This document shows, one piece after another, positions 22,934-63,116 of a stretch of 64,000 nt of DNA. A program made the position numbers and the translations under genes. Location: contig KL647307.1 in the NCBI GenBank assembly GCA_000727475.1, forward strand, positions 1,126,300 to 1,190,299, written 5' to 3'. Below the pieces are notes generated by a model that was given only the letters and a program-made list of their open reading frames with translations, had not been told where the DNA came from and searched no databases. Position 1 is the first letter of the stretch, and each line of letters begins with the position of its first letter. This DNA is from Sarcocystis neurona (lineage: Eukaryota; Apicomplexa; Conoidasida; Eucoccidiorida; Sarcocystidae).

Positions 22934-23143
22934 TATGTATATGTATATATATATAAACACGTTATATATTCGAGGAGGAAAAAAAGAGGTAGAGATCAAA
23001 AAAGAGATGGGATGCTGTTCATGCTGGAGGCCCAGTCTTCCGTTGCGCTGCTGGTGCTGACGTGCGTTGCGCTGCAGCGGGGAGTGTGGTTGCTGCTGGG
23101 GCTGCTAAAGTGTTGCATTTGCTGAGGTTTTCATCTGTTGCAG

Positions 23144-26100
23144 CGTACCAGAGAAACTGCAGCTTGTGCGAGTCACAGCGCACTGCCGTTGAAAGAGGGG
23201 GATTTCGTCTACTACATGCGAGGAGCGGACGCGTTGAAGCAGACGCAAGACGAGCTGCGCCCTCCTCTCGAGGCGCAACTCCGGCGACAGCAGCAACAGC
23301 AGCAGCAGGCGCACCAGCAGCGGAAGAGGGGCCGCACGAAGCGGCAACGACAGCAGCAAGGTCCTGAGGAGCAAGGGCGGCAGCACGAACAGCATCAAGT
23401 GGTGTCGGAGGTGCAGAGGTCGCCGCAGCAGCAGTCCGCAGGAAAGGAAGACCAGCGTGGGGCTAGGCAGCAGCAGGGCGGAAGAGCAACGCAACAGCAA
23501 GAGAGAGAAGCGGAGAAATCGCGGAGGAACGAGCAGCAGCAGGACGAGGAGGTGCCGCAGCTTCCAGGAGAGGTGCAGCTGCTGCGCCAGCGGTGAGGCA
23601 ATGTCTGCAAGGTGACCTGGACACAGGACTGTCTATCACTCCCTAGTCTCCCCACGTTAAATAGCTGCGCGCGGTTTCTCGAGCTGTAGCTGCGTACAGC
23701 GCGAGCGGTGGCTGCTACATTATGTGCTGCTGCCGCCCGGTGCTGCTGTGATAGCTATATGGCGCCTGCTCGTGTTCCTTTGTGAAAATGTTGCTGCGCA
23801 TCTCCGGCGAGACAGGGGGCGTTGTAGCATCCTTCCTCCTACGCAACGGTGTCGCGCTGCTGTCTGTGAGGATGCCCCGCTGCTGCCGCCCACGCTGCTG
23901 CTGCTGTTGCGCAGGCTGCTGTTCAAGGACACCGACTTCCTGGTGATCAATAAACCGTACGGACTGCGTACGCGTGGCCCGCGTCATAACAGGCTCCAAA
24001 TAGCTGCTGAAGAGGTGAATTTCCTCCTCGCAGATTAGCTGCTGCTGATCCTGCTGGGAGTACTTCGCTGCTGCCTTCCCTGCCACTGCTGCTGCGACTG
24101 AAGCAGGTGCCGCGCTGCTGTACATTCACTCTTGCCGTTGGTTCCAACCCTACTGCCACTACTACTACTACTACTAGTGCTACTACTACTACTACTACAC
24201 TGCTGTTTCTGCCGGTACTGCTGTTGCAGGTGGTGGCTGCTGCTGCTACGCATTTGCTGCCGCTGCTGCTACTGTAGCCATCGCTGCTGCTGCGCACTCC
24301 TCGTTGAGCTTGCTGCAGACGTCGCCGCTATTCCTCCTCCGGTGCTGCCTTTCCTGCTGCTGTTGAAACGGGTGGCTGCTGCTATACATCCGCTGCTGCC
24401 CTGCCTCGTGGCACTCCTGCTACCAGGGTGGTTCCTTCCGCTTGCCAGTGCTCTGCTGCTGCTGAAGCTCGTCTCTACTGATAGCAATCCCACGCTGCGC
24501 TTGCTGCTGTTGATCTGATGCACGCGATTTTGCGGGTTGTATATATTTAATATAACGAAGTTCTCCAAGTGTCTGATGGACTGTGACAGGGGTGAGGACA
24601 GCGGCAGGAGCGGCGCCAACAGCATAACAAAGAATTCTCTTGTACGTAGGGATGTATACACACGTGTCTACAGAGACCCTGTGGACTGCGTTGCTGCTGC
24701 AGCGGAGTGCGACGTGTGTCTACTCGCTACGCGGCCAGCTGCAATTCTCCATGCGAGAGGTAAGCAGCTGCGAAGATATTTTCAGACTAACGTATGAAGC
24801 AGCATCTACGTGTCTCTCTATTCGTAAACACATACACAGCTACTCGAAGCGATACAGCTCCAAGGCAGTTTGACCGGTCGTGTCTCTTTCGTCATTTATC
24901 CGAGTTATACATCTATGTATGTATCTGTGTCCTCGTAGGTATGGATGCGGTGTTGGGTCCCACCCTGTATTATACACTGATATATGTGCATATATATATA
25001 TACGTATATGTAGGAAAACGTTGCGCCTTTGACTGTGTAACAGCACACGCGTGTAGAGATTGATGCCGCGTGGTCGCACGGCTTTGCAGTAGCCATGCTG
25101 AGCAGCTGTATGTAGTTATATTTATATGTATATATGTATATGCATATATATAGACGTAGATATGGTAGACACATACCGACACACGTAGACGCACATATGC
25201 GTATATAGGTAAGAACTGCCGCTTGAAACAGGACCGATATGCCGGCTGGCCTATGCATTCACTACTGACCGGCCAACGGCGTAAATCTACACACACTGAC
25301 TTCTGCGCCTCCACGGGGCAGTGCCATATCTTCGACTAGAAAACATCCTGTAGTCATATCTTTTTTTGCATGCTCCGACTGTATCATACACGCGTGTATC
25401 TATATCTATTACATCTACATCTATATCTGTCTGCCGGTCAATCTTCATCTATCTATCTATCTCCGCGTCACTCTATATACACATATATATCTGTTCCTGT
25501 ACAAGTGTATGTGTCTACGCATCTTACTATCGAGTGTAAGCGTACGTGTGGCGTATGCGCCGGTTCCAGGGTTGTGATACGAGTTTGCAGGTGGGTCCGT
25601 ATAGGCAGGTGTCCACACGTGCAAGGCGTATGTGTGTAGCTAATAACAACAGTATGATCGGGAATGCAAGAAACTTTGCTTTCCCTATATCACTCCCGAG
25701 TTCCCCCACGCGTCTACGTTTTGATGCGCGTCTCCTCTCAAGAGGTACGGCCTGGTACGACCACGCCCCTCTCACACACGAACACAGAGACATACACACA
25801 CAAACGTATTTCACGTTGGCGTCACACGCAGTCCACCGGAAATGTTTGCCTCCGGTCTTTTATTTTAATGGCGGTAGCTTCCCTGACTCGTCGTACGTCT
25901 GACACTCGTATGCGGGACCCTGTCTATCTACTTACATATATATGCTGCCGTCCAAGCGTCTTCGTGGGTTCGATTCCCCCTCTCTGTCTCTGTCTATACG
26001 CGTAGATGCAGCTTTTCCGTTTCGTCCATATCGTGAAGAGTGTGTGCCTCCGTTAATATCTAGGCGTCACAGCTGCACAGAGCCTCTCTGTTAAGTTGTC

Positions 26101-28160: not shown

Positions 28161-28193
<33 letters not shown>

Positions 28194-31100
28194 ACATTGA
28201 GCAGTGGGTGTGCAACAAATCCTACTATGTGTACCGCCCACATATGCATACCGCTGTACTCGCCAAACGACACGTGGATGTACGCCACGTATCTCGTATT
28301 GACTTTTGTGTGTATATCTAGCCACGCGTCTCTCCCTCGCTTCGGAGTCTCAGATCTTGCACAACTTACACTGCCTCGCGCTTTGCAGACGACGGAGCGA
28401 CAGTTGGCCATGGACGTGTGCATGCGCGACCACGCCTGTGTGGACGCTTAAACTACGTTCCTACTGTGTTGCATGTATGTGTTTGAAGTGCGTTACTTAC
28501 CTGTATGTATGTATTGCACACACGTGTACGCGGATATATCTGGACGACGTATGCGTTCTGGAGAGACATCTTCAGATACGCTCTGGGAGTCCCTCGTTCT
28601 GCCCACCGGCGCTTGAGGCTGCAGGAAGAAGTGCCGGGCAGGTGTGACGCCTCGCTGTTGCAGCAGTGCTGTGACGCACCGTCGTACTATCTGCTTTGAC
28701 GCTGCTGTGTTCTGCCGTTGCGGCGGAATGCTCTTGCGATGCTACTGACGTTGGTCGGTCTCCTCGCGAGTGCCGCCGCTGTTGCTCAGTCCACCTGATG
28801 TTGCTGCCGCTGTTGCGCAGTCCTCTTGTTGCTTATTTTTAATGTTGTTGTTGCTGCTGTGTCGAACGGTGTAGCTGCAGTTGCTCTCGGTGCAGCCGCC
28901 ATCGCTGCAATCTGTACGGCCGCTGACGCTGCTGCTGCTCCTGCGACTGCTGCTTGCACTTCTTGCTCTGGCGGCCCCTCTCGCTTCTGTTGCTCCTGTC
29001 ACCGCCACAGATGCTGCTGTTACTGCCGCTGCTGGTCTGCTATTGCGACGCTTCTCGCTGCGGTGTCTACGGCGGCTGTCTCTGCTGTAGTTGTCCTGCT
29101 GTAGCTGTCCTGCTGTAGCCGTCCTGCTGCAGGTGTCCTACTGTGGCTGTAGCTGCTGTGGCTTTTGAGTCTGCTGCTGCTGTGCTTTCGTTGTGGCCCT
29201 GTGTACAGCGGCACTTTCTGGACGTGCTTTTACTGGGCAATTGTATTGGGACGGCCTTCCTGCGGTCAAAGACAGGGCGTTATACGCATTCCACTCGGAG
29301 AAATACAAGCTGTGCGTTGTCACACAACCCTATCAGCATAACCAAATACAAACGTATCCATTTGTGTGCCTACATTAACACATTTGTATACGCATGTACG
29401 CATTCGCATGCATGTATATGTGTACCTGTATCTACACAAGTGCACTTTTCATGTATTGCTGCACTTGTGTGTGTTGTGTCAATGGATGTGTGTGCCACGT
29501 AGCTTTATAGATGGGTAGAAGTCAACAACAGTTAGTATTGAAGACTACGCTAAAACACGTGGACAGCCTTTCTGTGCGGGTGCCGCCGTCTGGAAGCCGC
29601 AGTGTTCGCTTCAGCATGTTTCTCTTGAGATTCACGGCAGCGGCAGCCACCTGCTGTCTGCATTTCTTCTTCTTCTTCTCCTTAAAAACAGACGGATGAT
29701 TTCTGCGAATCTGCGTCCGTGACGGCGGCCATTCGTTCTCTCACTCGGTATCTCTCTCCGCGGCCCTCCCTGGCGATCTGCATGCCAACTTCTGGTCATG
29801 CATGCATAACTCTATAATATCTCTCTTCGGCTGTCTGCGTCCTTCCTTGCCTGTTTGACCCGGGCATGGCAAAACTGCCCACATGTGTGCTTGTGCGCCC
29901 ACCTTCCCATTAATTAATTATTAAGCAATCGCGCGTGCATGTCTGGGTTTACGTGTGTGTCTGTCTGGTGCGTGGAACGCCTCGTTAATCCTCCTGTCTA
30001 AAAGCCCACTGCCTGCTGTCCTGCCCACCCGTCTCTGCGTACGCAGGCAAGTGCCCCTCTGCTCAGGCGTCGGGATGGCGGCTGCACATCTGTGGAGCGT
30101 TCGTAGATGTGTCTATGTATGAAGTTGCTTGTGGAAGATGACCACAGGATGTGTCCACTGCGATTATAAGTTGCTGTCAGCGCAGGCCTGCCGTTGTTAT
30201 TCGTTGCTTCGCTTCATTTTCCCCTCTGCTGTCTGTCTACATCCATGCATTCTGTATCTACTCAAGCGCATCTATATGTCCGTTGCAGGCTTACATATAT
30301 ATATATATATATATTAGACCCTCTCGCTCTATACAGATATACACATAACCACATCTTTGTCCCTTTTGTTGCCCTTCTTACGCTGTTTTCTGTGTGCGCA
30401 CGTGTACATATATCTATGCGTATGCACTTGCCTGACTTTGGCCTCACATGTGGCGTAGACAGAAGCACATACCCTCGTATGTAGACCTACACGTGAGCCA
30501 GTGCTCGTAGCTCTCTCTTCATACATACACACGTACCTCTCTGTACATATATATATATATATAGGGAGAGAGAGATTTGTATACATGAAAACGTACGTAT
30601 ATACACGTACATGTATGTAAACATTCGCACACACATACTTGTACTTTTTACACATATAATATACCGTTTACACGACGTAAGGTCGTGTCTTCTGTGCAGT
30701 ATAGGGGCGTGTTACGTATCTCGCATGGTCCTCGCAGAGGTTTCTTGTGGCTGCAGCCGCTGCTGCATTGCTTGTTCGACTGCGCGTGTGGCTTCTAGGT
30801 ATTAATCTTGCTTCCGTGCTGCTGATGCTGTAGCTGCTGAGCGCAGCTGGGAAAGCAGCTGGTGCCACAGAGTTTGCTGGTTTGTCCGCGCAGCTGCTGT
30901 GCTCTTGCTGCCGCTGTTGCTCCTGCTGCTGGTGTTGCTCCTGCTGCTGTCGTGTTGCCTAAAGCTGTTGCTGCTGCAAGTACAATCGCTGCTGCTACGG
31001 CCGCTGCTGTAGGAGCTGGTGCTGCATTTGCTGTTGTCGTCACGGCTATTGCTACACTTTCTGCTGCAGCTGCCGCTCTCGTTCTACTGCTGCTACGGCG

Positions 31101-34100
31101 TCTGCTGCTGGTGACGCTGCTATTGCTTTGTCTGCAGCAGGTGGTACTCGTGCGTGACGCTTTTTTCTTCTGTAAAATGCTGCAGCAGCAAGGTGATGCC
31201 CCAAGCGTCATAGTCACGCCACGCGCTGCCCACCGAGGAGGAACTACTGCTGTGTCCCGCTGGCGTCTGCTTAAGACCACTCGCGTGCCCTCAGCAGCAG
31301 GAGCAGCAAGACGCGGACAAGCGACAGGAGCACGAGGAGGAAATGCAGCAGCTTCTGCAGGGAAAGGCTGCAGACCAGTCGCAGAAGAGGAACGAGGAAG
31401 AGAGGAAGAAGAAGCAGCAGCAGCGCCCAGCTACGTGTCCCTTGTGCAATTTGAAGTGACTCAGCAGCTCGTGAAACATCAAATCAGAGCGCACTGTCTG
31501 TACGGTAAGGAAACACCGATCAGCAATAGACGCGTGTGAGATCGTCATCTCCCCCTATATATAATAGAAATATACAAAAAAGATACATATATACATATGT
31601 ATATATACATATATATATATATATGTATGCCTGTGCATACACGTGTGTATAAAGGGTGCAGGTACGGTATATATATCTGAGTTTTTCTGTATGTGAAAGT
31701 GTATGTAGCTGGCTACACAGATGGTAACCCACGTACGCGTCCTTGTACATCTGCATACAGGCGTCCACGCATGCGTGTACATCCACTTTTTGTATACTGG
31801 CGCAGTAAATTAGTACACGCATGGTGGCAAAGTCTGCTGGAGCACAAGGTTCATCTGTGTAATCTGTATGTACATGTAGCTGTCTGTCCGAGTATATGCG
31901 TACATACATACACATACATATACATATATATGTAGGCTTTGTGTGCACCTCCATGTGCCAACGTCGGTCCTACTCTATGTACGAGCTCCTTGATTTGTAT
32001 CCCTGAATCTATGCAGGACTCGGTTGCAGCATCCTGGGTGATAGAATCTACGGCTTTTCCTTTTCCTCCTCATCTTCGTCTGCCGCTGCTGATGCCTCTC
32101 CGCTAGTGCATGCGTACGCCGGCGGCAATAGCGGCAGCGACCACTACGGCAATACCGACAACGCACGCAGCAGCGGCAGAACCTGTGCAGCTACCGGCAG
32201 CAGCAGACGCGAGAGTAGGCTCGCCGACACGCGAAGGCGCCATGAGACCGAGCACTTCAGGAGAAACAGCACCACGAGTGTCCGCAACAACAGTAGTTCT
32301 TCTCGCAGCAGCAGCAGCCCTAGCAGCGGTACAGTGCTCGTAGCCCCCAGCAGCGGTGCCGGCACTGCTGTGAAGAGTTCACTTGGCTGCAGCATCGCCA
32401 GACACCCTGCAAAGAGCGGCGGTGAGCGCTGCGGGAAGGGCGACGAGGAGAGCACCAACAGCAGCAGCAGGCAGTGGAGCAGAAGTGACGGAGAAGATGC
32501 GGACGAGGAAGCAAGACGACGTCGCGAACGAGCAGCTCTGCGCATGCTGCTAGGCCCGAGCATTCCTGGGATGCTGCATCTGCATGCACGAGCTGTGCGC
32601 TTCACTACGTTTGCAGGCATGTTTGCGTTTCTCTTGGTCCCTTCGTCTCTCTGTATCTCCACGTACAGCGGACGACTGCGTGAGCGTGACGCTCTGCGCT
32701 ACTTGTCCAAGGCTGCTGAAGTAGTTAATAGCAGTTACGCCAGCCCCGTGATGATGCAGGCTTTGCGAGGCTGTGGTCGGTGCTCTGTACAAGGACTACC
32801 AAACCCTCTGCGTCTTCATTTCCTCTTCGTGTTATAATACTGCTGTGCACCGCTGCAGCAGCAGCGCTATCTCCCGTCTATGCTCCTACGTCACCAAGTA
32901 GCCATAGTGCCTGACTGTCCACCAGCACATACGTACTTGTGCATCTACGTACAAAAACGTGTGTATGTACACATATATTTCTGTTCCCCCAGAATGTAGC
33001 TGCCTCGTGCACACCTATCTACGCACGGACACTACCGTGACAACACCAACTATCAGCTACGGCTGCTGATGGTACTGCCAGCGACGCCACACCTTGTAGC
33101 GTATGCAGCTGTTGCTGCTGTTGCTGCTCCAGGACGCGTAGTGGACGTCGTGGCTCCCCTACCTCCCCACATGCGCGTGACAGCGGAGCGTTTCGGCTGG
33201 TGGCCCTCTATCGAGCGACAGGAGCATCAACAACAGCACCTGAAGCAACAGGAGGAAGAAGACGTGACAGAGCAGCAGCTGCTCCTCCAGCAGATACCAG
33301 GAGCTGAGGATTCGCGGCGGTCGTGTTTGCAGGATGCGCCGCTCGCAGACGCTGCGGATGAAGACAGCTCTCTTCCCGAGACTGCAGAAGCCATCCTACA
33401 TGATGTATCAGTGCAGAAAGGTGAGCGATGCAGCGGACTAGCAGCAGCACAATGCAGGACCGGCACCGTTTGGTGCGAACGGTCCCCTTCAGCAACAACG
33501 CTGACATGAAGCGAGAATTGCAGAAGAACAGGAAAATTCCAGCCTCTTTCACAGCCGCTGTGCGTACCAGCGCATCTCGCGGCGCAGGGCTTCCGACAGC
33601 AGCGAACTTGCAGCAGCGGCAACCCTGCTGCAGCAGCAAGACTGTAGCAGCCCTGCAGCAACAGCAGCCCTGTTCCTTGACAACAGCACTGTTAGCAGCA
33701 GCAGAGAGCAGTGTTGGCAGCAGCAGAGAACAGTAAGAGTACCATACACTAGTTTGGCGCCGCTGAGCAGCGGAACCACTGCTAAGCAGCCGTAAAGCTG
33801 AGTTTTCCTTATGCAGCGTCGCGCTGCCTTCAAAGGGCATCAGCTAATAATATTCGAGCGCATTCCTTTGCTGGCTACGTAAATGCAGATCCACAGAGGT
33901 GGTGGAGAAGGTCGCTGCATTAACGAACGTAGAACGTAGGCTGTCTCCGTCCTGACTAGTTGCAGGGGTACTGCTACGAGAGGAGCGCAAAATGTGGTGG
34001 TCTTCTGCTAGTATTACTGGGTGTGACGTACGGGCGGGGCACACGAAGAACAGCACTGTAGACTCACTCAACCCATATGTCTGTAGTCCTGCAATATATG

Positions 34101-34485
34101 TATGAACACGTGCCTTCGTGTACCTACATGCCATGCATCCACCTAGGGGTGTGGGTAGCAGATGTAACGTTCTCACAGTAGCGAAGAGCGGACTGCACAT
34201 GTTGATATTGCACGCTGCCATATTGGTGAGGCTTCCCGTTGATGCTGCCGCTTTTGTTGGTGTCGCCGTTGCTGGGGACGGACTGTTGTTGCTCGATTCC
34301 TGTTGCTGTTCCTGTTGTTGCTGATGCTGCTTGCTGCTACCATGCGTGGTGCAGACACATCTGCAGTTGCACCGCACTGGATTGAGCGCTTCTACCGAGA
34401 GCGCGAAGCCGCACGCGAGCGGCGCAGTAAAGAAGCAAGCAGACGGCCTGTTGCTCCTCCGTCAATTCCCGAGGGCTTCGGTTAA
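23144..34485 (+). CDS. RluA-type RNA pseudouridine synthase
   Basis: The family isomerises uridine to pseudouridine in RNA. The exon model is 23144-23592, 23915-23967, 24674-24759, 26877-26938, 29209-29311, 31186-31504, 32017-32616, 33133-33420, 34355-34485, and all nine exons join in phase to TAA (697 codons with stop). Family motifs in order are FKDTDFLVINKPYGL, SSGCLFA, FYWAIVLGRP, AVSRWRLL, KHQIRAHC spliced to SILGDRIYG, LHLHARAVRFTTF and VVAPLPPHM. The N-terminal exon has a Gln/Arg-rich tail after LPLKEGDFVYYMRG, and a Ser/Gly insert follows the HQIR motif. In the usual HRLD position the spliced reading is ERMV, so the catalytic Asp seems lost. The seventh exon ends at a GC donor (32617); an alternative GT donor ends it at 32679. 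The true start codon lies upstream of 23144 and was not found. The cellular target is unknown. Confidence 0.85.
28163..28192. repeat. (GT)15 microsatellite
   Basis: An uninterrupted GT run within the fourth intron of the pseudouridine synthase gene. Confidence 0.95.
30740..31150 (+). repeat. Intronic CTG/GCT block before exon 31186
   Basis: About 400 bp of imperfect CTG/TGC/GCT triplets on the sense strand at the 3' end of a 1.9-kb intron. It ends about 35 nt before the acceptor at 31185. Open Leu/Ala/Val frames in it are not coding. Confidence 0.75.
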
Positions 34486-41604: not shown

Positions 41605-41642
<38 letters not shown>

Positions 41643-48949: not shown

Positions 48950-48986
<37 letters not shown>

Positions 48987-50722: not shown

Positions 50723-51127
50723 CGCGCACGAACGCCTTCCCCTCCTTCTTCTCCTTCTTCCTGCTGCTCCTGCTGCTCGTCTGCGACTGCTGCTGCCACG
50801 CGCTGTGGCTGCTGCTGTCACTTGCAGCTGCCAGTGCTGCTACGACCTTGAAGCCTGCGCTCCACACCCTGCAGAGACAGTTGACACGAAAAGTATTAGT
50901 GCTGCCGCGACCGCGTCTGCTCGTGCTGCTGCCGCTGCTGCTGCTGGGGAGGGGGGGTCATGTCGCTGTCGCCGAAAGGTGTTGCTGCTGCTCGCCTTGC
51001 TGCTCGGCAAAACGGTGGTATGGGCGAAATGCTGCTGCTGAAGTGCTGCCCCTGCGGTACACACCGAAGACGCTGCTGCCTCTAGACCGCTGCCGGCATA
51101 TGCTTACTGCTGCATTGTCAATCCCAC
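50723..51127. other. LEO1 5' flank, CAG-sense on minus strand
   Basis: Minus frames stay open upstream of the LEO1 ATG to an in-frame TAG near 50846. A minus acceptor (ctctgcag near 50870) could mark a small exon. A short hydrophobic minus frame lies around 50870-50930. Confidence 0.35.
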
Positions 51128-53694
51128 CTCCGCTGCACATGTGCGTCTGCAGTGCTGCCACTGACAGGGTATTCCGCTCGTGCTGCTCTGCTGTTGTTGC
51201 TGCTCGGCTGCAGCAGCTGCTGCGGCTGTCCTGCTTGTGCTGTACTGCTGCTCCCCGCGCGCGTCTTGTTGCGGTTGCAACCGCTGCTGTTCCCGTCCTG
51301 CGACTATCTGCTGGTATTGTATCGCCGCTACACCTCGTCTTCCGCTGCTCTGCAGTCGCTGTCCTGCTGCTCCTGCTGTCCTGTTGCTCCTCCTCCTTCG
51401 CTGTTGCTCCCCCCCTGCTGCTGTCGCTGCCACCCGGCGGCTGCTTCGCGCGTCTACTGAGCCGGGACGCCTGACACGAGGAACGGCAGCTGCTCAACGG
51501 CAGCAGCAGCACAACGGCAACAGTGCCAAAAGGGACACAGCCGCCGTGTTAGAAAAGGAAGCAGCAGGGGTAGACAGCAGCGGCTGAACCAGGCGGTGCC
51601 AGTGCCAACAGCAGCAGTAAGTGGCACCAGGAAAAACGAGAAGCAGAAGCAGCAGCAGCGAGTGGCGGGGAGAGGGGCGGCACCGGAGAACGAGCAGCAG
51701 CAGCCAGAAGGTAGAAGCACCGCATCAGCAGGGAAGAGCTTAAATAATAGCGTCACAAGTCATAGGCACAGGAGGTTCACTTCTTCCCTGAGGCACAGAC
51801 AGCGAGCTTCGCCAGCAACCAGGAAATCTTCAGCACCGGCGGGATGAAATGATTCTTTCAGCGTGGAGAGCCAGAAGAGGAGGAGGACACTTGACGAGGA
51901 AGAGGAATGCGCGCATGCAGCAGCAGCCGTACTTCACAGCAGCTGCAGGAGAAGAGGCTGCTTTTCTCACGTGCGGATACAGCCACTAGTGACTCTACGC
52001 AGGACCCGCCAAGGCACTTAAAAAAAGCAGCGGAAGAACGCTGCAGGACGCACAAGTGGGTCGTGACCGCCCGACAGCAACTGCAGAAGCTTGGCATCAG
52101 GAAGAGTAAAGACGCACACCGGACGGCAGGGAGGCGTTTTCTGCGGCGACGCAGGAAGGTCACAGAACACGCGACCACCTACGCAAGGGGAGGCTCCCTA
52201 CCGCGACTAACCCGACGAAAAGAAGAAGAAAGTCGCTTCTTTTTACTTGTATCGAGACGGATGCAGCTGCCAAGTGAAAGAGAGGTGATGTCCTTTGTAG
52301 CAGATGTCGTTGTCATCATGGCGCGGTGCGCATGCAGCCGCACTTTTTATCGAGGAAGAAGAACCGACGGGTGTCCTGCTGCATGCGCACACCCGCTACA
52401 GGCTGAGCAGCAGCAGCCGCAGCAGCAACAGGAGCAGCAGTCGTACTAGTGGAACGTCGTGTCAGACAGACGCCGAAGAAGCGGGAGAGTACGCATGCCC
52501 ACTGCAGGCGGACTAGCGCAGTACCAACAGCAGCAACAGCGGCGGCGACTCGAAGTCAAAAACGAGCACAAACGAAGGGTTTCGAGAGACAAGAAGCCCC
52601 GAGCAGGACCTCTGTCAGCAGCAGTCGAACAAGCGTCTGCGCGGCAGCATTTTAGCGGCAAGAACGGCCAAAAAATCCCTAGTGGCCGGCCCCAAGTCAT
52701 GCATGTGCGGGCGGATGCCAACCGCTCTTCCACATTCACTTACATACATACATATACATATATATATATATGTAGGGAGAAGCGGAAATACGTGTAAGCG
52801 TATACATATGTGCGGGTTTCTTTTCATCAATGCCTTGTTGCGGTGTGTCCCCCTACTCCCACCATCTCTATACTTCTTGTCTCGTATACACTGCCGCTCT
52901 GCACACCGCTATCAATCTGTCTACTGTCTGAGACTCCCTTTCTCTCTGTATACACATATCTATATATATATATATATATATTTGTATTTGCCGTATTTGA
53001 CCGCATATGCGTCTACACGTCGGCAGAGGACGACACGCTGCGGTAGAAACCTCAGTGAAAGTGAACTGTCGTCTCGCCTGCTCTTCACGAGACGCCTGTC
53101 TCCTCCGCGGCTCTGCGCAGCACATGCCCGCCTCGGCATTTCCTCCTCCTTCTGCTGCTGCTTGAGCCGCTCTCACCTGTGGCACGCAACTTCTCGACTT
53201 CCCGAGACGCTCCGGTCGCGTGCTGCTCCTGCTGCCGCGGTCCTTCGCGTCCACAACAGCAGCGACTGCTCTTCTGCTTCCCGTACACTGCATGTGTTGC
53301 TTTCCGCTTCTTTTGCTCTAGGGGGCGGCTGCTGCTGTTCCTGCGCCGTAGGGTTGCAAGCGTGAGCCACCACCGCTGCTCTGCTGCCTCTCCGCCGCAT
53401 CTGCTGCCGCTGCTGCTGGTGGCTGCTCTCTTCTCCGCGAACAAGGCAGCAGCTGCTGCTCTTCTCCTTCTCTCTCTGCTTCGCGTCGTCGACGGCTGCT
53501 GCTGCGTCTCCAACTCGCTCTTCGTCCCCAGACAGAGCACGCGAAGCTGCTTGCTGCAGCAGCAGTAGCAGCTTGAACTGCTGCTGCCGACTTTTCAACT
53601 GGCGAAGGCTGCCTCCCCGGCGACAGCCCTGCGTCAACAGACAAACGGCCAGCAGGCTGAACGCACTGCGTTGCGCCGCCGCTACCGGCGGCAT
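51128..53694 (-). CDS. Gln/Arg-rich hypothetical protein, two phased exons
   Basis: Exon 53694-53177 begins with ATG and a signal-peptide-like stretch (AFSLLAVCLLTQGC). It continues with Glu/Lys/Gln-rich sequence including ALSGDEERVGD and QQQRQQMRRRGSR, and reaches an excellent donor, GTGAGA, in phase 2. Exon 51470-51128 starts in phase 2 after gtgtcag and is Gln/Arg/Ala-rich with VAAIQYQQIVAGREQQRLQP. It ends in phase 0 at GTGGGA. The intron (51471-53176) carries CTG triplets on the minus strand just before the acceptor. The exons may be a separate gene or 5' exons of LEO1; a secretory signal would argue against the latter. A plus-strand ORF (51907-52449) lies inside the intron. No domain is recognised. 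Confidence 0.35.
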
Positions 53695-54339
53695 CGACCG
53701 CGTCAGGACGGCGGCGCGGCAGAAGCAGCGGAAGCAGCACACGGCCCCGCAGTAGCGGCAGCCGAAGCAGCAAGGCAGCCGAAGCAGCAAGGCAGCAGAA
53801 ACAGCAAGGCAGCAGAAACGGCAAGACAGCAAAAACAGCAAGACAGCAGGAGCAGATACACAGCGGAGACAGCAGCACCACGGGCCAAAAAAGAGCCAGT
53901 AGGAACGAAAGGAGCAACAGGAGGCCGAACACGAGATTCAGCCAAGACGGCAGCAGAAGGAGCAGCAGCAGCAGGAAGAAGAGCAGCAGTGGCAGCAAGG
54001 AACTCCGGCGAAGGGAGCGCGAGCCTCGGATCTGCATCAGCCGTTACGCGCTGCAGAAGCCGCAGCAGAAGCCGCACGGGCGTCAGAGCCTCAGCAGCCA
54101 GGAGAGCAGCAGTGCAACAGCAAACACCCAGCGCAGCAGCAGCAAAGCACGGGCGGGGGAAGCAGCAACGACAGAAGCAGAAGCAGCAGCAGGAAGAGAC
54201 CGGCGGCCACAGCAAAGGAACCTCCCCGCGTGTCCCGGAGGTCCGGCGTGGGCCGTGCGAAACGGCAGCGTCGCCAACACAGCGCGGCAAGCGCGTAGTA
54301 GGGCTACTCAGTAGCAGCGGAGTTTAGCGAAGGCAAAGG

Positions 54340-57300
54340 ATGACAGAGAACGCCGGAAGCAGCTGCTGCTGCTTCTCGAACAGCAGGCTGCCCCAACGCC
54401 AGCAGCAGCTGATACTGCAACAGCCAGAACAGCAACAGTTGCTGCAGCTGCAGCAGGAACAGGAGCATGAACAGCAGCATGAACAGCAGCAGGGACAGCA
54501 GCAGGAACAGCAGCAGCGAAATCCGCAGGAACAACAGCAGTCGAGGAGGAAGACAATTTTGCTTGTGGAGGCAGATGCGTTACTGCTGGACTGGGGCTCG
54601 TTGCTGCAGTGTCTGCTTCAGGGGCTGCTGGGGAGGAAGCTGCGCGACGGGGAGAAGCGACTGCTGCTGCTGCCCGGCGTGACGCTCTATGCAGCAGCTA
54701 AACGTGTGCTGCAGCAGAGCACCTCGCTGCCGCCCTCTCCGCGCTACCCGAAGTGCAGACAGAAGCTGCTTCAGCAGCAGCAGCAGAAGCTGCAGCAGTC
54801 GCTTCCCCAGCACCAGGGCGGCACAGAGCAGCACCAGCCCTGTGAAAAGCTGCAACCGCCGCTGCAGCCGCAGCAGCGTGAGCGGCAGTGGCCTCAGAAA
54901 GAGCAGCAGCAGACAGACAAGGTTGAGCAGCAGGAGTGGCTGTACAGCGAGCTGCAGGACACCTGCAAACAGCAAGAGCAGCAAGGGGCTGCGACCCATC
55001 TGCTGCGTGTCCTTGCCGGGGCAGACTTCCCTCCGCATGCAGCTGCAGACGCAGCAGCAGCAGCTGGACCAGCACCGGCAGCAGCATCACACGAAACGGG
55101 AGCAGCAGGGGAAGAAGCGGGAGTAGCAGCAACAGGGGTACAGAGAGACGCAACAGCAGCAGCAGCGAGTGGGGAAGTGGCAGGCGAAGAGCAGCTCCAT
55201 ACGCTGCTGCAAGTGCTGGGCGCTGCGGTGAAGCCCCATATAGGCGCCTGCCGCTTCCTTCATGCACTGGCTCTCCACGGTCAACAGCGGCAGCAGCAAC
55301 CCGTCCACCTCCACCGGGAGCAGGAGAAGCTGGGAGGGCAGCAGAGGGCGCTGCAGCGGCAGCAGCAGGAGCAGCAGCTGCAGCAGCACGCGGGAGAGAG
55401 GGGAGGCAGCTGCCGTGCTGTTCACGTGCTGCTGTGCACCAGCAACGTGGCGCTGTGGAGACAGCACGTCTCCCAGCTCCGCCAGCAGCAACAGCAGGAG
55501 GCGCTGGAGCAGCAGCGGCAGCAACTTAAGGATGCGCGACAGCAGCAACAGCTGCAGGAACAAGGTGCGGACGACCCGAGGGAGCGACAGCAGCTGGAGG
55601 ACGAGAAAGAGGAGCCGGCTTCCTGGACTCAGCAGCAGCTGCTGGGCCATTTGCCGAAAGATAGTGCAGCCCTGCTGCAGCTGCTTGACAACGGGGCAGC
55701 TTCCTTTGTGAATTTGCAGCAGGGCGCAGCAGGCATGCGTCTGGCCGTCCTGCAGGCGAGCAGCAGCAGCATCGACTGCAGCCCCAGAGGCAGCTGCAAG
55801 AGCAGGAGTTACAGCTGCTTCCTGACCACCGACACCAACGTGGAAAGAAGCAGCAACAGTTGCAGCATCAAACGAGACAGCAGCAGCAACAGCACCGCAT
55901 GCAGCAACAGCAGGGAGAGCAAGACAGGGGCAGCGTCAGGGGAGAGAGTACCCGGTGCCGAGGACTTCGTAGCGGCGATAGCGAAGACGCCCGAGTTTGC
56001 TCGCCTGGCGCTGCATGCAGGTAATGTTTGCTTCTTAGACTAGCATCAGCGGCAGCAGGAGCAGCGCAGGAGCTGCAACAATAACGGCAGCAATGGCAGC
56101 AGGAGCACCAAGAGGCAGCGCAGCGGCAACAAGAGCAGCAGAAGCAGTTCGAGGAACGCCAGCAGCAGTTCTTGCAGCAGCACCAGTTCTAGCAGCAGCA
56201 GCACTTCTCGCAGCAGCATCAGTTCGAGGAACACCTGCAGCAGTTCTAGCAGCAGCAGCAGTCCTCGCAGCAGCAGCACTTCTCGTAGCAACAGCAGGCC
56301 TATCAGCAGCAGCAGCGCTGTGGATATGTCTATCCCGTATCCTTCACCACATGCATATACATATATGTATGTATACGTATATATATATATATGTGTATAT
56401 GTCTATCCGTATATAGTCCTTAGTGTGTATATATATATATATATATATCTGTATGTGTGTGTAGGTATCTGCTGTATATGCATCCGTCTACCGCATATTC
56501 TTCAACATATACAAATGTACATATATATATATATATATATGCTTCCGTATACAGTCTTACACATACGTGTATATATATATATGTATGTAGTTGTGGGTGC
56601 CTGATGTCTACGTATCTGTCTATCTGAATTCATTCACAACACATATATATATATTAGATGTGTACTCCTTCCTTTCTGGCCGGCACTGCAGGATGCAGAT
56701 GTTTTGCTGCTCCTTCACCGTTTTCGTCGAACGACGTAACAGAAGGTCGGCAGGCGCCTGCTCCGGGGGTGTTGCAGCTACTGGGCGCAGCGGCAGCGCC
56801 TGCTGCAGCCGCAGCAGAGACCGCCGGGACACGGGCGCCCACCACGTGGCAGCAGCGTCAGTTGGTACAGCAGGAACATCTGGAGGGGCAGCAGGAACAA
56901 GCCCAGCAGCGGGAGCACCTGCAGCGGCAACAGGACGAAGGGCAGCAGCAGGAGGAGGGGCAGCAGCAGGAGGAAGGGCAGCAGCAGGAGGAAGGGCAGC
57001 AGCAGGAAGAAGGGCAACAGCAGGAAGAAGGGCAACAGCAGGAAGAAGGCCAGCAGCAGGAAGAAGGCCAGCAGCAGGAAGAAGGGCACCTGCAGCAGCA
57101 ACAGCAGCGGCAGCGACAGGAGGAGGAAGTGAAGCGGGAGGAGGAGCGGTCCGATGGCGCTTTTTCGTTTTGTCTCTGTTCCGCTGAAGGACAGCAGCCA
57201 GAGGCAGCTACGGGAAGTGAAAAGGCAGGGAAGCCACTAGTACTGGACGCCCGTAGCAACGGCAGCATGCGGAGGAGTAGCAGCAGCAACAAGGACACCA

Positions 57301-60300
57301 GCAGGAGCAGTCGCAGTCTCGACAGCAGCCGCATGTGCGACAGTACTGACTGCAGCAGCGTCAGCAGTAGCAACTGCGCTGACAGCAGCGAGAATAGCGG
57401 CAACAACGCGAGAGCTGCCAGCTGCTGGTGCAGCCTACGTGGACAAAATCTTATCGACATCCTTTTGGGCAGCGCCAGCAGCAGCACATGTGGAAAGGAG
57501 AGGAGAGAGAGCACCGACGGCCGCAGGTCGAACAGCAGCAGCTGCTGCTGTTGTGGGGAGCATTTTCTGCATGAGCCACCTGCGGTGGATCAACCTACTG
57601 CATTCCAGCCATTTGTTTGTGACGCATGCGAGCAGCAGCAGCTCCTGCCTGCGCTACTTGTAGAAACGGTCGAACAGGTAAACCTCGCTGCTCTGCTGCG
57701 TGACTCGGGGACTCCAGCTGCACGGCTCGCGCGCAAAGCAGCAGCGTCTGAAGGAGGCAGTGGATCGGCAGCAGCAGGACCAACAGTCACAGCAGCGGCA
57801 TCAACAAGACTCGCCGCAGCGCCAGCAGGCGCAGCAGCAGCAGCCTCAGCAGCAGCAGCACCGGCAGCAGCAGACCCAGCAGCAGCAGCACCGGCAGCAG
57901 CAGACCCGGCAGCAGCAGACCCGGCAGCAGCAGACCCGGCAACCACAGGAGCCACATCAGCAGCGCCAGCCCCAGGAGCAGTAGGAGCAGACACCGGTGC
58001 AGCAGCAGGAGGAAATATGCTGCACAGCGCAGGGAATGCTTCAGGAAGAGAATCCTCAGCAGCTCCAGATAGCAAAACACGAGCAGCCTCTGCACCAAGA
58101 GCTGCTTTGGCGTCAACAGCGGAAGCAGCAACAAACGCATTGAAAGACAGCGTCGCAGCTCAGGACAACAACAAACGCAGCAGCAGCGGCTTTGCTTTTC
58201 TAAGGCATGCAGCTGCGTTAGCGCCCCCCGCCTTCCTGCTGCCTCCTCTGTATCCACAGAAAGTAGCGCCGTTGGGAGTCTCGCTGCCGCAGCCTGCTGC
58301 TCCCTGTGAAGCAGCGTCTCACGCTTCAGAAGAGCCTGCGTTCTGCAGAAGCACCAGTTTAGCAGTGACAAATCCTGGCGACAGCAGCAGCAGCAGTCTA
58401 GCAGGTCCAGATGCTGCTGGCTGCTGCTGGGCCGCTTCTTGTGGAGCCTGCGCACGTCTTCACCAGGAGTGGAGGGCTATGCTGGACCAGCACCGCATGC
58501 GGGGACAACCGCAGCAGCGAGAGCAGGACGAACAGCGGCGTGCAGACGCGTTGAAGCAGCACCTTCAGCAATCAGTCGAACAGAAACAGCAGCAGCAGCC
58601 TGTCAAGCAGCTGCAGCACGTCGAACAGCAGCAGCAGCATGTCAAGCAGCAGCAGCAGCACGTCGAACAGCAGCAGCAGCATGTCAAGCAGCGGCAACAG
58701 CATGTCAAGCAGCAGCAGCAGCATGTCAAGCAGCGGCAACAGCATGTCAAGCAGCAGCAGCAGCAGCATCTCAAGCAGCAGCAGCAGCATGTCAAGCAGC
58801 AGCAGCAGCAGCATGTTGAAGAGGAGCAGCAGGATGTCAAAGAGCCGCAGCAGCATGTGCAGCAAGAGCAAGACGTCGAACAGCAGCGGCAACGGCGCAG
58901 ACAGGAGCAGCCTGCACCGACGCAACACCCTGGAGAGAAGGTCGCGGGCTTTTCTCGGTCGGCTATCCCAAGACGGGAGCTGCAGCTTCAGTGGATCGCG
59001 CATGCAACGGGCCTTAGCTGCTGGAGGGCAGCCGTGTGTCTCTCTGCACCATACGTTTTCAGCGGCATCGTCGTCAAGGGGTTCGGTCGCGGAAGCAAGT
59101 TGCTGGGCATTCCCACTGCGAACGTGGAGCTGCTGCTGCCGCCTCTCGTGGCTCCGTTTCTCTCCGCTTGCGCTTCCTCCTCTGCAGCGGCGTCCCATAC
59201 CGCGGGACCTGCTGCTCTCGCTGCGGCTCCTTCGTCTGGAGCCGCATCCCCTCTCGCGGGACTTGCTGCTTCCGCTGCTGCTTTTATTGCTCTGGGCGCG
59301 ACTCTGCCTACTGCAGCACGTACGGGCTCAAGGTCTGCCGGTCCCCCTCCTCCTGGCGCCTGCTTGGTGGCTGCGTCTTCTGAGGCGGCTGCGAGGAAGG
59401 CGGCCGGGTGTGAAACGCAGCAGCGGCAAGGAAGCATACAACAGCAGCAGAGGAGCCCGCAGCAGCAGCAACTGGAGGAGTCGACACAGCAGGAACAAGA
59501 AGGACCAGCCGTAAAAAATTTTTCGAGCGAAGGTGGCGTGTCCTTCAGCAGTTGCAGGCAGCTGCTGCCCGGTACGGCCGTGTCCTTCCGTTCAGACTCT
59601 CGCAGCAGCCACGCACCCAAGTTTCTTTCCCCCGTGATATGGCTAGTGCAGGCACCCACCTATTTAAGTGGCTATGCGCATGCGTGACTGTGCAACTATA
59701 CATCTCCTCCCGGCAAATAGGCTTCTCTGTATGTCCTGCGCTACTTTGCATGCGAGTCTACGAAGAGCTCCTCGTGAGGCGGACTGCGACAGCTGCGGCT
59801 CCTGGCTCTGTCCGACGGTCGGTGGGAGTGGTTATCTGGCAGCTGCAGCAGCTGTCGAGCCGCAGAGAAGTGCGGAGAAAGTGTAAATCCCGGCAGGCCG
59901 CTGCATCTCAGCGCGCTTTCCCATATTCCACGAGACGAAGAAGGCTCTTTTCTGTTGCTTGCGCACTAAATATTAGTCGCACACGTACAGACAGAAAGAA
60001 GAGTTGCCCTGTGCCGCCGCCTCTTCACCGGCCAAGCGTTGCGCTCAAGGTTGGGTCTGCTGCTGTTGCTTGTAGATCCCGTGTGATGTGAGGCAAGGAA
60101 GTCGGGTGCTGCAGGCCGCCTCCTCCCGGTGCGTCTCGCTGGTGGAGAAGGGGGAGCGACCTGCTGCTGCTTCGTTGCGCGTGTTGCTGCTGCTGGACAC
60201 GTCTGCCTTTATGTGTCTCGGCGTGCCTGCCAGACCAGCCGGCGTGTCTGTGATCCACTCAGGCGCTGTACACTTTATCGTCTTTTCAGAGATGTCTGCC

Positions 60301-61030
60301 GTTTGTGGTAACGCACGTGTTGTTCCTTCTGCGTAGATATCGACGACAGCAACGTAGTGCATGGGGCGCAGCAGCACGTGTCGCTGTGCTGCGATGTACT
60401 TCCTCCCTCCACGTGTGACCTTCCCCAGTGGACTGGTCTCTATACGCGGTCGGAGCCATACCCCTATATTTATACCACATATATATATATATATATGTGT
60501 CACGCACTTCTATGAAAATCTACCAGCTACGCGTATATATAGACAGTTGAGAGGACTGCCTGTAGAGGTGTAGAGGTGCACAAAAATGTAGGGATATGTG
60601 TCCACATACATGTATGTTACGGTGAGACTGATGGGCCCCTCCACAGATATATATGTAGGGGCGTGTACGTGTACACACGAGAGCATCGCGCTCGATTAGA
60701 CGCTACCTGAAGAGGATACACGTGGATGTGTAAAGAAGGATGCCAGGACACACGTATATATGTACGTGCTGCTCTCTATCTCCCCTATATTTATATCTGT
60801 ATGCGTATGGGACGAAAGTGCGGCTTTGCAAGCACCACACACATATGTGTACGTAAACCCAGAGCGCCATATACAATATGTACAAATACGTACGTATACA
60901 TGTATATTCCTGCGTATACGTATACACCACTATATATATATATATCCGTAGACGTCAATATACATATGTACATATATATAAACTGAAGAAGTGCGTATGA
61001 GGATGCACATGTTCAATGTAAATAAGTAGA

Positions 61031-61070
<40 letters not shown>

Positions 61071-63116
61071 GGTGTCTGCGCATATATATATATGTATCTG
61101 TCTGTAGCTTATACTTTGTCTATATATGACGGAGAGGCACATACACACCTATGTTTGCACCGAGAAGAGCGCGAGTGTGCGTGTGCTATATATACAGGCG
61201 TATACTACGGCTGGTGCGCGCTGGACCCGTTGCGACTGAGCAGCAGGAGCAGCAGGAAGAGCGACAGCAAGACAGCCAGCAGCCCTCTGACTGAAGATGA
61301 GAGCAGCAGCAGCGGCAGCAGCGGAGCAGGCGACGCCAGGAACCGGGACTCTCCGCGCATATATAAGACGGTGGTGTCCGTCGGCTATAATCCACACTTC
61401 GACAACGCTGCCCTTTCCATCGTACGAGAAGAACTTTCTCACCTTCTTCTCGCGCCGACTTTCTGCTGCACTCTGCGCTGCTTCGCGCCGGTGTTCTCCT
61501 TCGGCGGCGTGGGATGTCTTTCATATTCTCTGCCTCGCTGGCCTTCAGCAGCCTCTTCTGTTGCAACGTGTAGACACGCTACTGCGTATATTTGTCCAGG
61601 AAACCGGGTGTCCCTTCTGCGTGTGGGGTATCTAATGACGCTGCAGAAGCACTTCCATAGCACTGCTGGGGTAGACAACTCAAGTGCTGTACACGTTCGT
61701 GTACGCATCTGTAGACAAGTACATGGCCACATCTATATCTATCTGTCTACCTGTATATATATATGTATATAGGTGTGCAAATCTGTGTAGGTGACTGTAT
61801 CAACGTATACATATATGTTTGTATGTGTGTAGATACACAGGTGTGTGCGTCGACATATACATGTGTGTGTGTATGTACATGGGTCGGTGTGTTAGTGGGA
61901 AGAGCGCAGGCTGCTGTTCTCTGGTAAGATACTGGCTGTGAAAAGCACCTGTCTGTGCCCACGACTGTTGCTCTCCATATGCGTAAAGAAACAAAGGTGT
62001 CCGGGAGTATTCACACATATGTAGGTATGCCTATATATATATATATATACGGAGAGTAGAGAATGCAGACGTATAGTGGACGATGTGTGTGTATGTTCAG
62101 ACATATACGGCTTGTGTGCTAAGGGACGTGGGTGTGTACGTGGCCATTATATATGTGTGTCGTATGAAGACACCCGCGTATAGTTATGAAGCGGGGATGT
62201 GATGGTCTAAGGACCCACATATGTAAATATCGAGCGAAGATAAAGAAAGTACAGGAATACTACAAAGACGGCGCCTTTTCTTCCATGAATTGTACACCAA
62301 GCATCGTGCCCTCTTCGCACTGGGGGCTCTTACAAGCCAAAGCAGGACGCGTGTATCCCCCGCCCACGCGTCTCCCTACGTGCGTGTATGTACGTGTGTA
62401 CGACGTGTCGTAGAGGCATATATATATATATATACATATATGTATATATATATATATAGGTCTAGTGTGTCTTCTCACGTATTGTCTGTAGTGCTGCAAG
62501 GAGTCGCCTAGTGAGTGCTATGCGAGGGACGTCCGGAGAACACGCCTGCGGTGCTTGCGATATCCGTGTCCAACATATATATATACATATATGTATTCTT
62601 TACCTCTACATTACGTACATACGTAAGGCATACACATATACATATATATATATGTGTATATGTATATTTTTATCTGTACGTTACACACATACATGCTTGA
62701 ACTGTGCGACGCCCTGTTGCTGCCAAAACTGCTGTATTGCTGCTGTTTCACGTATGGTACGATGGTGACACTGCGCTGCAGCACGCTGCGGTGCTGCTGG
62801 CGTTGCTGGGTGATGCCTCGGCTGCTACACCTGTTGCTGCCGCGTGTTTGACTCTCGCTGCTGCCGGTGTCGGGACTGCTGCGCTGCTGTACGGTCACAG
62901 GAAGCGTATCTCTACCACGAGTTCGAGCAGGACTTTGTGGCCAGCCCCATTTCCCTCGTCCTCACGGGTTTCCTACGGAGTGAAGCCGCTTTTCTTTCGT
63001 GCTTCGGTATGTCCATTCATTGACCTCTTTGCTGATATGGAGTTGCTTTTCATAGGATTCCTACAGACATGTGTGTGTCGCACAAATTGGCACAGCCGTC
63101 AGTGCACCACGCGTAG
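54340..63116 (+). CDS. HAD-like domain fused to riboflavin kinase
   Basis: Riboflavin kinase phosphorylates riboflavin to FMN. Exons 54340-56020, 56692-59571, 61198-61421, 62901-63006 and 63067-63116 join in phase (1647 codons with stop); an in-frame TAG precedes the ATG. The kinase domain (from about residue 1350) shows GFGRGSKLLGIPTAN, the splice-made LLPGVYYGW, SVGYNPHF, then YHEFEQDF and LTGFLRSEAAF, all family hallmarks. The last exon (DMCVSHKLAQPS) is tentative. Upstream, a HAD-like fold aligns to plant FMN hydrolase/riboflavin kinase: ILLVEADALLLD (residues 73-84), GACRFLHALALHG with LLCTSN (near 367), GRQAPAP (579-585) and PLVLDARSNG (742-751). The acidic residues expected in motifs I and IV are missing, so this part is probably not a phosphatase. 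Long Gln/Ala linkers separate the motifs. Product of the kinase half is secure. Confidence 0.88.
56050..56320 (+). repeat. CAG tract in intron 1 of the riboflavin kinase gene
   Basis: A sense-strand CAG-rich block just after the donor at 56021, with a duplicated segment of about 65 bp (the gttcgaggaac element at 56147 and again at 56221). It cannot be coding in the phase of the flanking exons because exon 1 would meet a TAG at 56041. Confidence 0.7.
56930..57095 (+). repeat. 18-bp coding repeat (GQQQEE)n
   Basis: About nine in-frame copies of an 18-bp unit coding GQQQEE within exon 2 of the HAD/riboflavin kinase gene, inside the insertion between HAD motifs III and IV. Confidence 0.9.
58600..58880 (+). 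repeat. 21-bp coding repeat (QQQQHVK)n
   Basis: About ten in-frame copies of a seven-residue unit, QQQQHVK or QQQQHVE, with QRQQHVK variants, lie just before the riboflavin kinase domain. The heptad spacing with Val at a fixed position could form a coiled coil. Confidence 0.9.
61035..61069. repeat. (GT)17 microsatellite
   Basis: A GT run in intron 2 of the riboflavin kinase gene. Confidence 0.95.
62705..62892 (+). repeat. Intronic CTG block before exon 62901
   Basis: CTG/TGC/GCT triplets on the sense strand fill the last 190 bases of intron 3 and run up to the acceptor ggtcacag at 62893-62900. Confidence 0.8.

What the first reader, a model, noticed from the sequence alone, without database searches (positions are those of the whole stretch)
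23042..62900. Strand-asymmetric triplet repeats: CAG in exons, CTG at intron 3' ends
In the hand-built genes most exonic triplet tracts read CAG on the sense strand, whereas many introns carry sense-strand CTG/TGC/GCT tracts that end at or near the acceptor. I count this at about 15 of 26 acceptors examined: 2307, 8263, 8462, 23144, 23915, 29209, 31186, 33133, 34355 and 62901 on plus; 51470, 47152, 45611, 38953 and 37370 on minus. On the minus strand the asymmetry flips, as expected if it follows transcription. CTG tracts may replace a polypyrimidine tract, recruit CUG-binding splicing factors, or be able to pair with CAG tracts of neighbouring exons in the pre-mRNA. Counter-examples are sense-CAG blocks in introns at 56050-56320 and 44110-44288.
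Basis: partly seen in the sequence, partly recalled or inferred. Interest (0 to 1): 0.88.

Follow-up and report, generated by a model that had tools for sequence, protein, structure and literature searches.

The report
CTG repeats before splice acceptors
In this coccidian parasite genome the common CAG/CTG repeat tends to read CAG in coding exons and CTG just before the ends of introns, most likely because two ordinary filters (which amino-acid runs proteins tolerate, and keeping false AG splice signals away from the true one) act on a repeat that has no strand preference of its own.

Summary
The asymmetry is real. In Pfam-anchored introns elsewhere in this genome, perfect CTG tracts outweigh CAG in the last 100 nt in 21 introns, CAG in 3 (106 examined; p=0.0003). 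It survives a gene finder blind to the repeats and an acceptor model cut to positions -3 to +1 (15 v 2 of 71). Genome-wide, CTG lies upstream of the acceptor-like TTTTGCAGG at 59 sites, downstream at 25; CAG 35 and 34. Anchored exons favour CAG (28 v 10 of 114); their CTG tracts sit mostly in the alanine frame (45 of 65).

CTG belongs to a wider A-poor, AG-poor zone about 200 nt long: A is 9.7% at 8-30 nt, G 29.6%; A-free runs without CTG tracts cover six times more than T-free runs. The acceptor is the first AG after the tract in 15 of 20 introns, 7.6 expected. Best reading: A/AG exclusion before acceptors plus a protein-level filter in exons. Pairing is weakly supported; CAG near donors has no side preference (35 v 41). 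Models inside the window itself show no bias. The organism looks Sarcocystis-like, not Eimeria. No RNA evidence.

The parts
61509..62900 (+). Homology-anchored intron of the riboflavin-kinase gene
   Evidence: Joined exons on both sides match PF01687 Flavokinase, E 1.9e-13, profile 2-105 of 124; GT at 61509, AG at 62899-62900
62725..62900 (+). Imperfect sense CTG/TGC/GCT block running up to the acceptor
   Evidence: Last 200 nt: 60 CTG-family and 5 CAG-family trimers; previous AG 117 nt before the acceptor AG; sequence read
59320..61197 (+). Second homology-anchored intron of the same gene; no CTG block at its acceptor; donor uncertain because the exon frame stays open to 59684
61198..61508 (+). 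Riboflavin-kinase exon with sense CAG tracts
   Evidence: PF01687 profile 38-73 alone (E 0.017, below cut-off), part of the joined match
54340..59319 (+). Predicted exons 54340-56020 and 56692-59319, rich in sense CAG (Gln/Ala/Ser runs)
   Evidence: end of the second exon matches PF01687 profile 2-30
56050..56320 (+). Sense CAG block given as counter-example; lies after a predicted donor at 56021
   Evidence: prediction, not homology-anchored
44289..44462 (-). Leo1-like exon (start inside the open frame not determined)
   Evidence: PF04004 Leo1, E 3.4e-9, open frame 44118-44462; weak Leo1 matches in solved structures, E 0.0083 at best
44110..44288 (-). Sense CAG block given as counter-example; begins at a candidate GC donor CAG|GCAAGC (44288-44283); frame also open to 44118, so it may be exon
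2207..2306 (+). 100 nt before listed acceptor 2307
   Evidence: 28 CTG-family v 7 CAG-family trimers
8163..8262 (+). 100 nt before listed acceptor 8263
   Evidence: 27 v 6
8362..8461 (+). 100 nt before listed acceptor 8462, with a perfect 7-unit CTG-family tract
   Evidence: 35 v 7; tract 8431-8451
23044..23143 (+). 100 nt before listed acceptor 23144
   Evidence: 30 v 5
23815..23914 (+). 100 nt before listed acceptor 23915
   Evidence: 25 v 4; acceptor also chosen by the repeat-blind gene finder
29109..29208 (+). 100 nt before listed acceptor 29209
   Evidence: 31 v 4
31086..31185 (+). 100 nt before listed acceptor 31186
   Evidence: 28 v 6
33033..33132 (+). 100 nt before listed acceptor 33133
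   Evidence: 22 v 8; also chosen by the gene finder
34255..34354 (+). 100 nt before listed acceptor 34355
   Evidence: 26 v 1
51471..51570 (-). 100 nt before listed acceptor 51470
   Evidence: 23 v 5
47153..47252 (-). 100 nt before listed acceptor 47152
   Evidence: 21 v 3; also chosen by the gene finder
45612..45711 (-). 100 nt before listed acceptor 45611
   Evidence: 41 v 2
38954..39053 (-). 100 nt before listed acceptor 38953
   Evidence: 13 v 5; also chosen by the gene finder
37371..37470 (-). 100 nt before listed acceptor 37370
   Evidence: 18 v 7; another AG 1 nt before the acceptor AG

Best explanation
The CAG/CTG repeat arises without strand preference and two independent filters sort it by transcription. 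In exons, selection on the protein tolerates Gln, Ser and Ala runs, so CAG is kept in all three frames while CTG is kept mostly in the alanine frame. In introns, the stretch up to about 200 nt before the acceptor must be poor in A and above all in AG, because the spliceosome takes the first suitable AG. A sense CAG tract there would be a row of decoy CAG acceptors; a CTG tract has no A, no AG and no GT and runs straight into the consensus end TGCAG|G. Shown on gene models: the asymmetry, its distance profile, the A/AG depletion, first-AG use, the frame bias in anchored exons. Inferred: that scanning for AG and protein selection are the causes.
For: CTG over CAG in the last 100 nt: 21 v 3 of 106 anchored introns, 15 v 2 of 71 with a -3 to +1 acceptor model. 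AG per 100: about 1 at 2-12 nt, 2.2 at 12-25, 4.0-4.5 at 25-150 nt from the acceptor, against 6.5-11 at the same distances from the donor. A 9.7% at 8-30 nt rising to 20.5% at 200-250 nt (59 introns). A-free runs of 20 nt or more 2,669 nt v T-free 379 nt in the last 100 nt; not touching CTG/CAG tracts 1,913 v 321 (85 introns). First AG after the tract in 15 of 20 v 7.6 expected (p=0.0009). CTG upstream/downstream of TTTTGCAGG 59/25, CAG 35/34. Anchored exons CAG 28 v CTG 10 of 114; CTG frames Ala 45, Leu 12, Cys 8. Repeat strand-neutral on the assembly: (CTG)6 1,613 forward, 1,685 reverse.
Against: CTG exceeds CAG also in intron interiors (1.41 v 0.44%), beyond the reach of a 200-nt zone. CTG is enriched before acceptors over the interior (3.61 v 1.41%), not just CAG removed. 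Without stop-codon restriction the flanks of matched exons show only 23 v 15 (p=0.26); introns with both exons anchored alone give 5 v 1 of 34, and introns with neither anchored 2 v 2 of 28. Window gene models show no bias at acceptors. The alanine-frame preference is not seen in unanchored predicted exons (Ala 27, Leu 28, Cys 3) or window models (Ala 17, Leu 25, Cys 13). No branch points and no RNA data.
Confidence: 0.6

Rival explanations
1. CUG tracts are positive splicing elements: they serve as the U2AF-binding tract or recruit CUG-binding (CELF- or MBNL-like) proteins that define the acceptor.
For: CTG is enriched before acceptors over the intron interior (3.61 v 1.41%) and TGC and CTG exceed base-composition expectation 2.1- and 1.8-fold there.
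Against: A-free runs without CTG tracts are just as one-sided (1,913 v 321 nt); most anchored introns have no CTG tract in the last 100 nt. No binding protein was looked for.
Confidence: 0.15
2. Mutation or repair linked to transcription makes or keeps repeats in one orientation within introns; splicing plays no part.
For: CTG exceeds CAG in intron interiors too, and T exceeds A in introns.
Against: The bias depends on position: CTG share is highest near acceptors and reaches parity 600-1000 nt upstream; exons of the same transcripts lean the other way.
Confidence: 0.1
3. Sense CAG near the donor pairs with CUG near the acceptor of the same long intron (or with CAG of neighbouring exons), looping the intron and bringing the splice sites together.
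For: In 24 high-confidence introns the first 200 nt have CAG in 7 and CTG in 0, the last 200 nt CTG in 5 and CAG in 0; CAG lies upstream of CTG in 15 of 19 gaps with both; two introns pair far beyond shuffles (z -6.1, -4.1).
Against: In the larger set the donor side is 14 v 8 (p=0.29) and only 8 of 14 introns with both have CAG first; mean z -0.87 over 20 introns; CAG is as common before as after the donor motif (35 v 41).
Confidence: 0.07
4. Model artefact: acceptor-like AGs are picked because TGC|AG resembles the consensus, or CTG blocks are CAG-rich exons of antisense genes.
For: The learned acceptor consensus resembles the end of a TGC tract; 9 of 16 CTG-bearing intron ends have a positive antisense coding score (mean 2.6).
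Against: The bias persists with positions -8 to -4 removed from the acceptor model and with no splice model at all beyond in-frame stops (15 v 3). Matched exons score 22.4 in sense and 7.4 in antisense.
Confidence: 0.08

Closest known systems
AG exclusion zone upstream of 3' splice sites (scanning to the first AG; concept recalled, the term was seen only in the listing)
   Same: AG depleted upstream of the acceptor and the acceptor is usually the first AG after the tract
   Different: Here A as a whole is depleted with no loss of G, and the zone is often filled by the genome's main triplet repeat in its A-free orientation; branch points unknown
CAG-encoded homopolymeric amino-acid repeats of Eimeria (passages of PMC7564333, PMC4287421, PMC9131526)
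   Same: CAG-family repeats in coding sequence read as Ala, Gln and Ser
   Different: Host genome is 123 Mb, lacks the heptamer repeat in the 238 kb scanned and is not closest to Eimeria; those passages say nothing on strand in introns
Polypyrimidine tract of U2-type introns (recalled)
   Same: T rises next to the acceptor (36% at 8-30 nt)
   Different: G is 30% and C+T only 61%

Membership tests
AG exclusion zone / first-AG acceptor choice | AG depleted between branch point and acceptor | tested here: met
   About 1-4.5 AG per 100 within 150 nt v 6.5-11 at the donor side, 85 introns; extent relative to branch points unknown
AG exclusion zone / first-AG acceptor choice | Acceptor is the first AG downstream of the zone | tested here: met
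   15 of 20 introns with a CTG tract within 150 nt, 7.6 expected
AG exclusion zone / first-AG acceptor choice | Branch point lies upstream of the zone | not testable with these tools
   needs lariat sequencing
Classical polypyrimidine tract | Strongly pyrimidine-rich stretch before the acceptor | tested here: not met
   C+T 60.7%, G 29.6%, A 9.7% at 8-30 nt, 59 introns
Eimeria-type CAG/HAAR genome | CAG repeats in exons read as Ala, Gln, Ser | tested here: met
   Gln 46, Ala 42, Ser 27 tracts in 114 anchored exons
Eimeria-type CAG/HAAR genome | AAACCCT heptamer repeats | tested here: not met
   0 doubled heptamers in 238 kb
Eimeria-type CAG/HAAR genome | Closest relatives are Eimeria | tested here: not met
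   Named best hits are Sarcocystidae; no Eimeria name among the 120 listed of 7,691 hits or the 6 listed
CUG-binding-protein recruitment site | A CELF/MBNL-like protein binds the tract and affects splicing | not tested
   no search for such proteins was made; binding needs experiment

The most novel reading that the evidence does not exclude
Long introns of this coccidian use the two orientations of the genome's main repeat as splice-site-specific parts: sense CAG at the donor end and sense CUG at the acceptor end, which pair to close the intron while the CUG arm also serves as an A-free landing zone for acceptor choice.
Probability: 0.08. Interest if true: 0.75.

Novelty: new variant of a known kind. 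Interest (0 to 1): 0.45.

Why it matters
It explains why a repeat that is symmetric between the two DNA strands looks strand-specific around genes, and it gives a rule of use for gene finding in repeat-rich coccidian genomes: a sense CTG block suggests an acceptor just downstream. It also suggests that acceptor definition in this lineage rests on absence of A and AG rather than on a pyrimidine tract, which RNA-seq and minigenes can test directly.

Tried and rejected
Donor-side CAG as a general rule: perfect in the first 24 high-confidence introns (7 v 0) but 14 v 8 in the larger set, and CAG is as common before as after the donor motif. Intron-closing duplexes: mean z -0.87. Pfam on 20 single window ORFs gave only riboflavin kinase and Leo1 above their cut-offs. 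A joined model over 23012-33441, which I took from recalled motifs for a pseudouridine synthase, gave no Pfam match, so its introns are not claimed as anchored. The rest of the Leo1 domain was not found by motif in 40.7-44.5 kb. Window gene models are poor: 13 genes, the first (1-6223) with 20 in-frame stops; in their 24 introns of 400 nt or more the first and last 200 nt hold 61/41 and 98/98 nt CAG/CTG. I gave that result little weight because of the models, but it is against the reading. Searches with PF00063, PF00118, PF01602 and RF01960 did not complete. Of 68 regions wanted 40 were fetched, so 34 of 110 exon pairs were not examined. Rows dropped before counts: 10 of 76 gaps with an open frame throughout; 13 of the 66 others (more than 20 missing profile positions) when splice sites were modelled; introns with N; introns shorter than twice the end window. 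Papers: only passages found by term were seen (PMC7564333, PMC4287421, PMC9131526, PMC8785600, PMC6381282, PMC3315734, PMC3505466, PMC5354109). The paper searches listed no paper whose title or abstract start is on the strand of triplet tracts at coccidian acceptors; the library lacks most subscription papers, and two Eimeria genome papers asked for by DOI are not held.
Full report
What was tested. The window is part of a 123-Mb, 74-contig genome. To test the claim without hand-built genes I used Pfam matches in six frames over the whole genome for four families (kinesin PF00225, protein kinase PF00069, tRNA-synt_1 PF00133, SNF2-related PF00176): 251 exon pieces, 110 consecutive pairs. Sequence could be fetched for 40 of 68 regions, giving 76 pairs, 66 of them not one open frame between the two matches.

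Acceptor side. In the 66 gaps perfect CTG tracts (three or more units) outweigh CAG in 23, CAG outweighs CTG in 9, 34 are equal. For 53 gaps donor and acceptor were modelled (consensus near CAG|GTAAGC and TGCAG|G). In the 34 high-confidence introns the last 100 nt hold 93 nt CTG and no CAG; in all 53 it is 102 v 20 nt (5 v 2 introns). A small gene finder trained on these data, in which CAG and CTG tracts score zero so that they cannot influence the models, predicted 183 introns in 219 kb. In the 106 with at least one Pfam-anchored exon and 200 nt or more, CTG dominates the last 100 nt in 21 and CAG in 3 (p=0.0003); with both exons anchored 5 v 1 of 34; with neither 2 v 2 of 28. Because TGCAG resembles the end of a TGC tract I repeated the run with positions -8 to -4 removed from the acceptor model: 15 v 2 of 71 introns with an anchored downstream exon (p=0.002). 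With no splice model, counting only DNA beyond the first in-frame stop upstream of each matched exon, it is 15 v 3 (p=0.0075); without that restriction 23 v 15 (p=0.26), where unmatched exon may be included (107 flanks).

Genome-wide count. CTGCTGCTG within 30 nt upstream of TTTTGCAGG occurs at 59 distinct sites and downstream at 25 (p=0.0003); CAGCAGCAG at 35 and 34 (Fisher p=0.019). How many of these motif sites are real acceptors is unknown.

What the zone is. In 85 anchored introns of 300 nt or more, CTG tract density is 3.61% in the last 100 nt, 1.41% in the interior and 0.98% near the donor; CAG is 0.69, 0.44 and 1.19%. AG runs at 6.5-11 per 100 on the donor side, 4.0-4.5 at 25-150 nt from the acceptor and 1-2 within 25 nt. 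A is 9.7% at 8-30 nt and climbs to 20.5% at 200-250 nt, while G is 29.6% at 8-30 nt (59 introns). A-free runs of 20 nt or more cover 2,669 nt of the last 100 nt against 379 nt T-free; leaving out runs that touch CTG or CAG tracts, 1,913 against 321; near the donor 781 against 1,006. So CTG is one filler of a general A-poor zone. In 20 introns with a CTG tract ending within 150 nt of the acceptor, the acceptor is the first AG after the tract in 15, with 7.6 expected. The interior excess of CTG over CAG is not explained by a 200-nt zone; decoy acceptors inside introns are a possible reason, not tested.

Exons. In 114 Pfam-anchored exons CAG dominates in 28 and CTG in 10 (p=0.005). CAG tracts read Gln 46, Ala 42, Ser 27; CTG tracts read Ala 45, Leu 12, Cys 8. 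The shortage of Leu and Cys runs points to selection on the protein. In unanchored predicted exons (17 v 11, p=0.35; CTG tracts Ala 27, Leu 28, Cys 3) and window models (26 v 12; Ala 17, Leu 25, Cys 13) the frame preference is missing; some of those may not be exons. Published passages on Eimeria describe CAG tracts as Ala, Gln or Ser runs (PMC4287421, PMC9131526).

The window itself. All 15 listed acceptors are AGs at the stated places and all are CTG-rich. The gene at 54340-63023 ends in riboflavin kinase (PF01687, E 1.9e-13 over three joined exons). Of its two anchored introns, 61509-62900 ends in about 170 nt of imperfect CTG repeats with no other AG in the last 117 nt before the acceptor AG; 59320-61197 has none. 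The two counter-examples follow a predicted donor (56021) and, at the Leo1-like exon (PF04004, E 3.4e-9), a possible GC donor CAG|GCAAGC at 44288; in the second the frame stays open through most of the block, so exon is possible. Across all my window models there is no acceptor-side bias (98 v 98 nt, 24 introns); these models are unreliable in such repeat-dense DNA.

Donor side. CAG near donors looked striking in 24 introns, but the larger set gives 14 v 8 (p=0.29), and CAG flanks the motif AGGTAAGC equally on both sides (35 upstream, 41 downstream; CTG downstream 11). CTG upstream of that motif was not counted. The donor-side CAG may be exon-type repeat that continues past the donor, or exon proper. 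It stays open.

Pairing and antisense. Donor-side against acceptor-side 250 nt of 20 high-confidence introns: mean z -0.87 against dinucleotide shuffles, 4 of 20 below -2; own pairs average -126.4 kcal/mol, exchanged pairs -120.9. Antisense coding score of CTG-bearing intron ends is 2.6 on average (16 ends, 9 positive), other ends -12.9 (41), matched exons in sense 22.4 (53): antisense exons are not supported, nor fully excluded.

Organism. A single-exon kinesin is 52-57% identical to Cystoisospora, Toxoplasma, Neospora and Besnoitia proteins; Cystoisospora and Toxoplasma are 69% identical to each other. A second kinesin is 89-94% identical to proteins filed under pika, bobwhite quail and sperm whale and 69-71% to Neospora, Hammondia and Cystoisospora; I read the former as parasite contamination. 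Size and GC (123 Mb, window 52.2%) resemble Sarcocystis neurona (128 Mb, 51.2%) rather than Eimeria tenella (51.9 Mb) in a table of PMC5354109. Doubled heptamers are absent from 238 kb. Sarcocystis-like is inference; no rRNA was read.

Verdict. A real transcription-linked asymmetry, best explained by two ordinary filters on a strand-neutral repeat. The less ordinary part is that the acceptor zone excludes A rather than collecting pyrimidines. A function of the CTG tracts beyond being AG-free is not shown.

Noticed in passing
L062 predicted kinesin (G000:C2:3442739-3444981): Its closest proteins (89-94% identity) are filed under Ochotona princeps, Colinus virginianus (labelled UNVERIFIED_CONTAM) and Physeter catodon, probably coccidian contamination of animal genome records.
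   Followed up: partly
G000:C2:8347424-8355619: Two pieces of one protein-kinase domain are separated by 8,196 nt that stay open in the same frame without a stop (797 nt CAG, 289 nt CTG tracts): either a giant in-frame insertion or an intron without stops.
   Followed up: no
window 44283-44297, minus strand: The Leo1-like exon may end at a GC-type donor (CAG|GCAAGC).
   Followed up: partly
window 54340-63023, plus strand: Riboflavin-kinase gene with a repeat-rich N-terminal part of well over 1,000 predicted residues in which the single-ORF Pfam scan found no other domain.
   Followed up: partly
G000:C22:1246891-1247047: A short cluster of regularly spaced copies (26 or 52 bp steps) holding both AGGTAAGC and CAG triplets.
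   Followed up: no
window 18953-19501: 549 bases read N inside a TATA/TACA-type low-complexity stretch.
   Followed up: no
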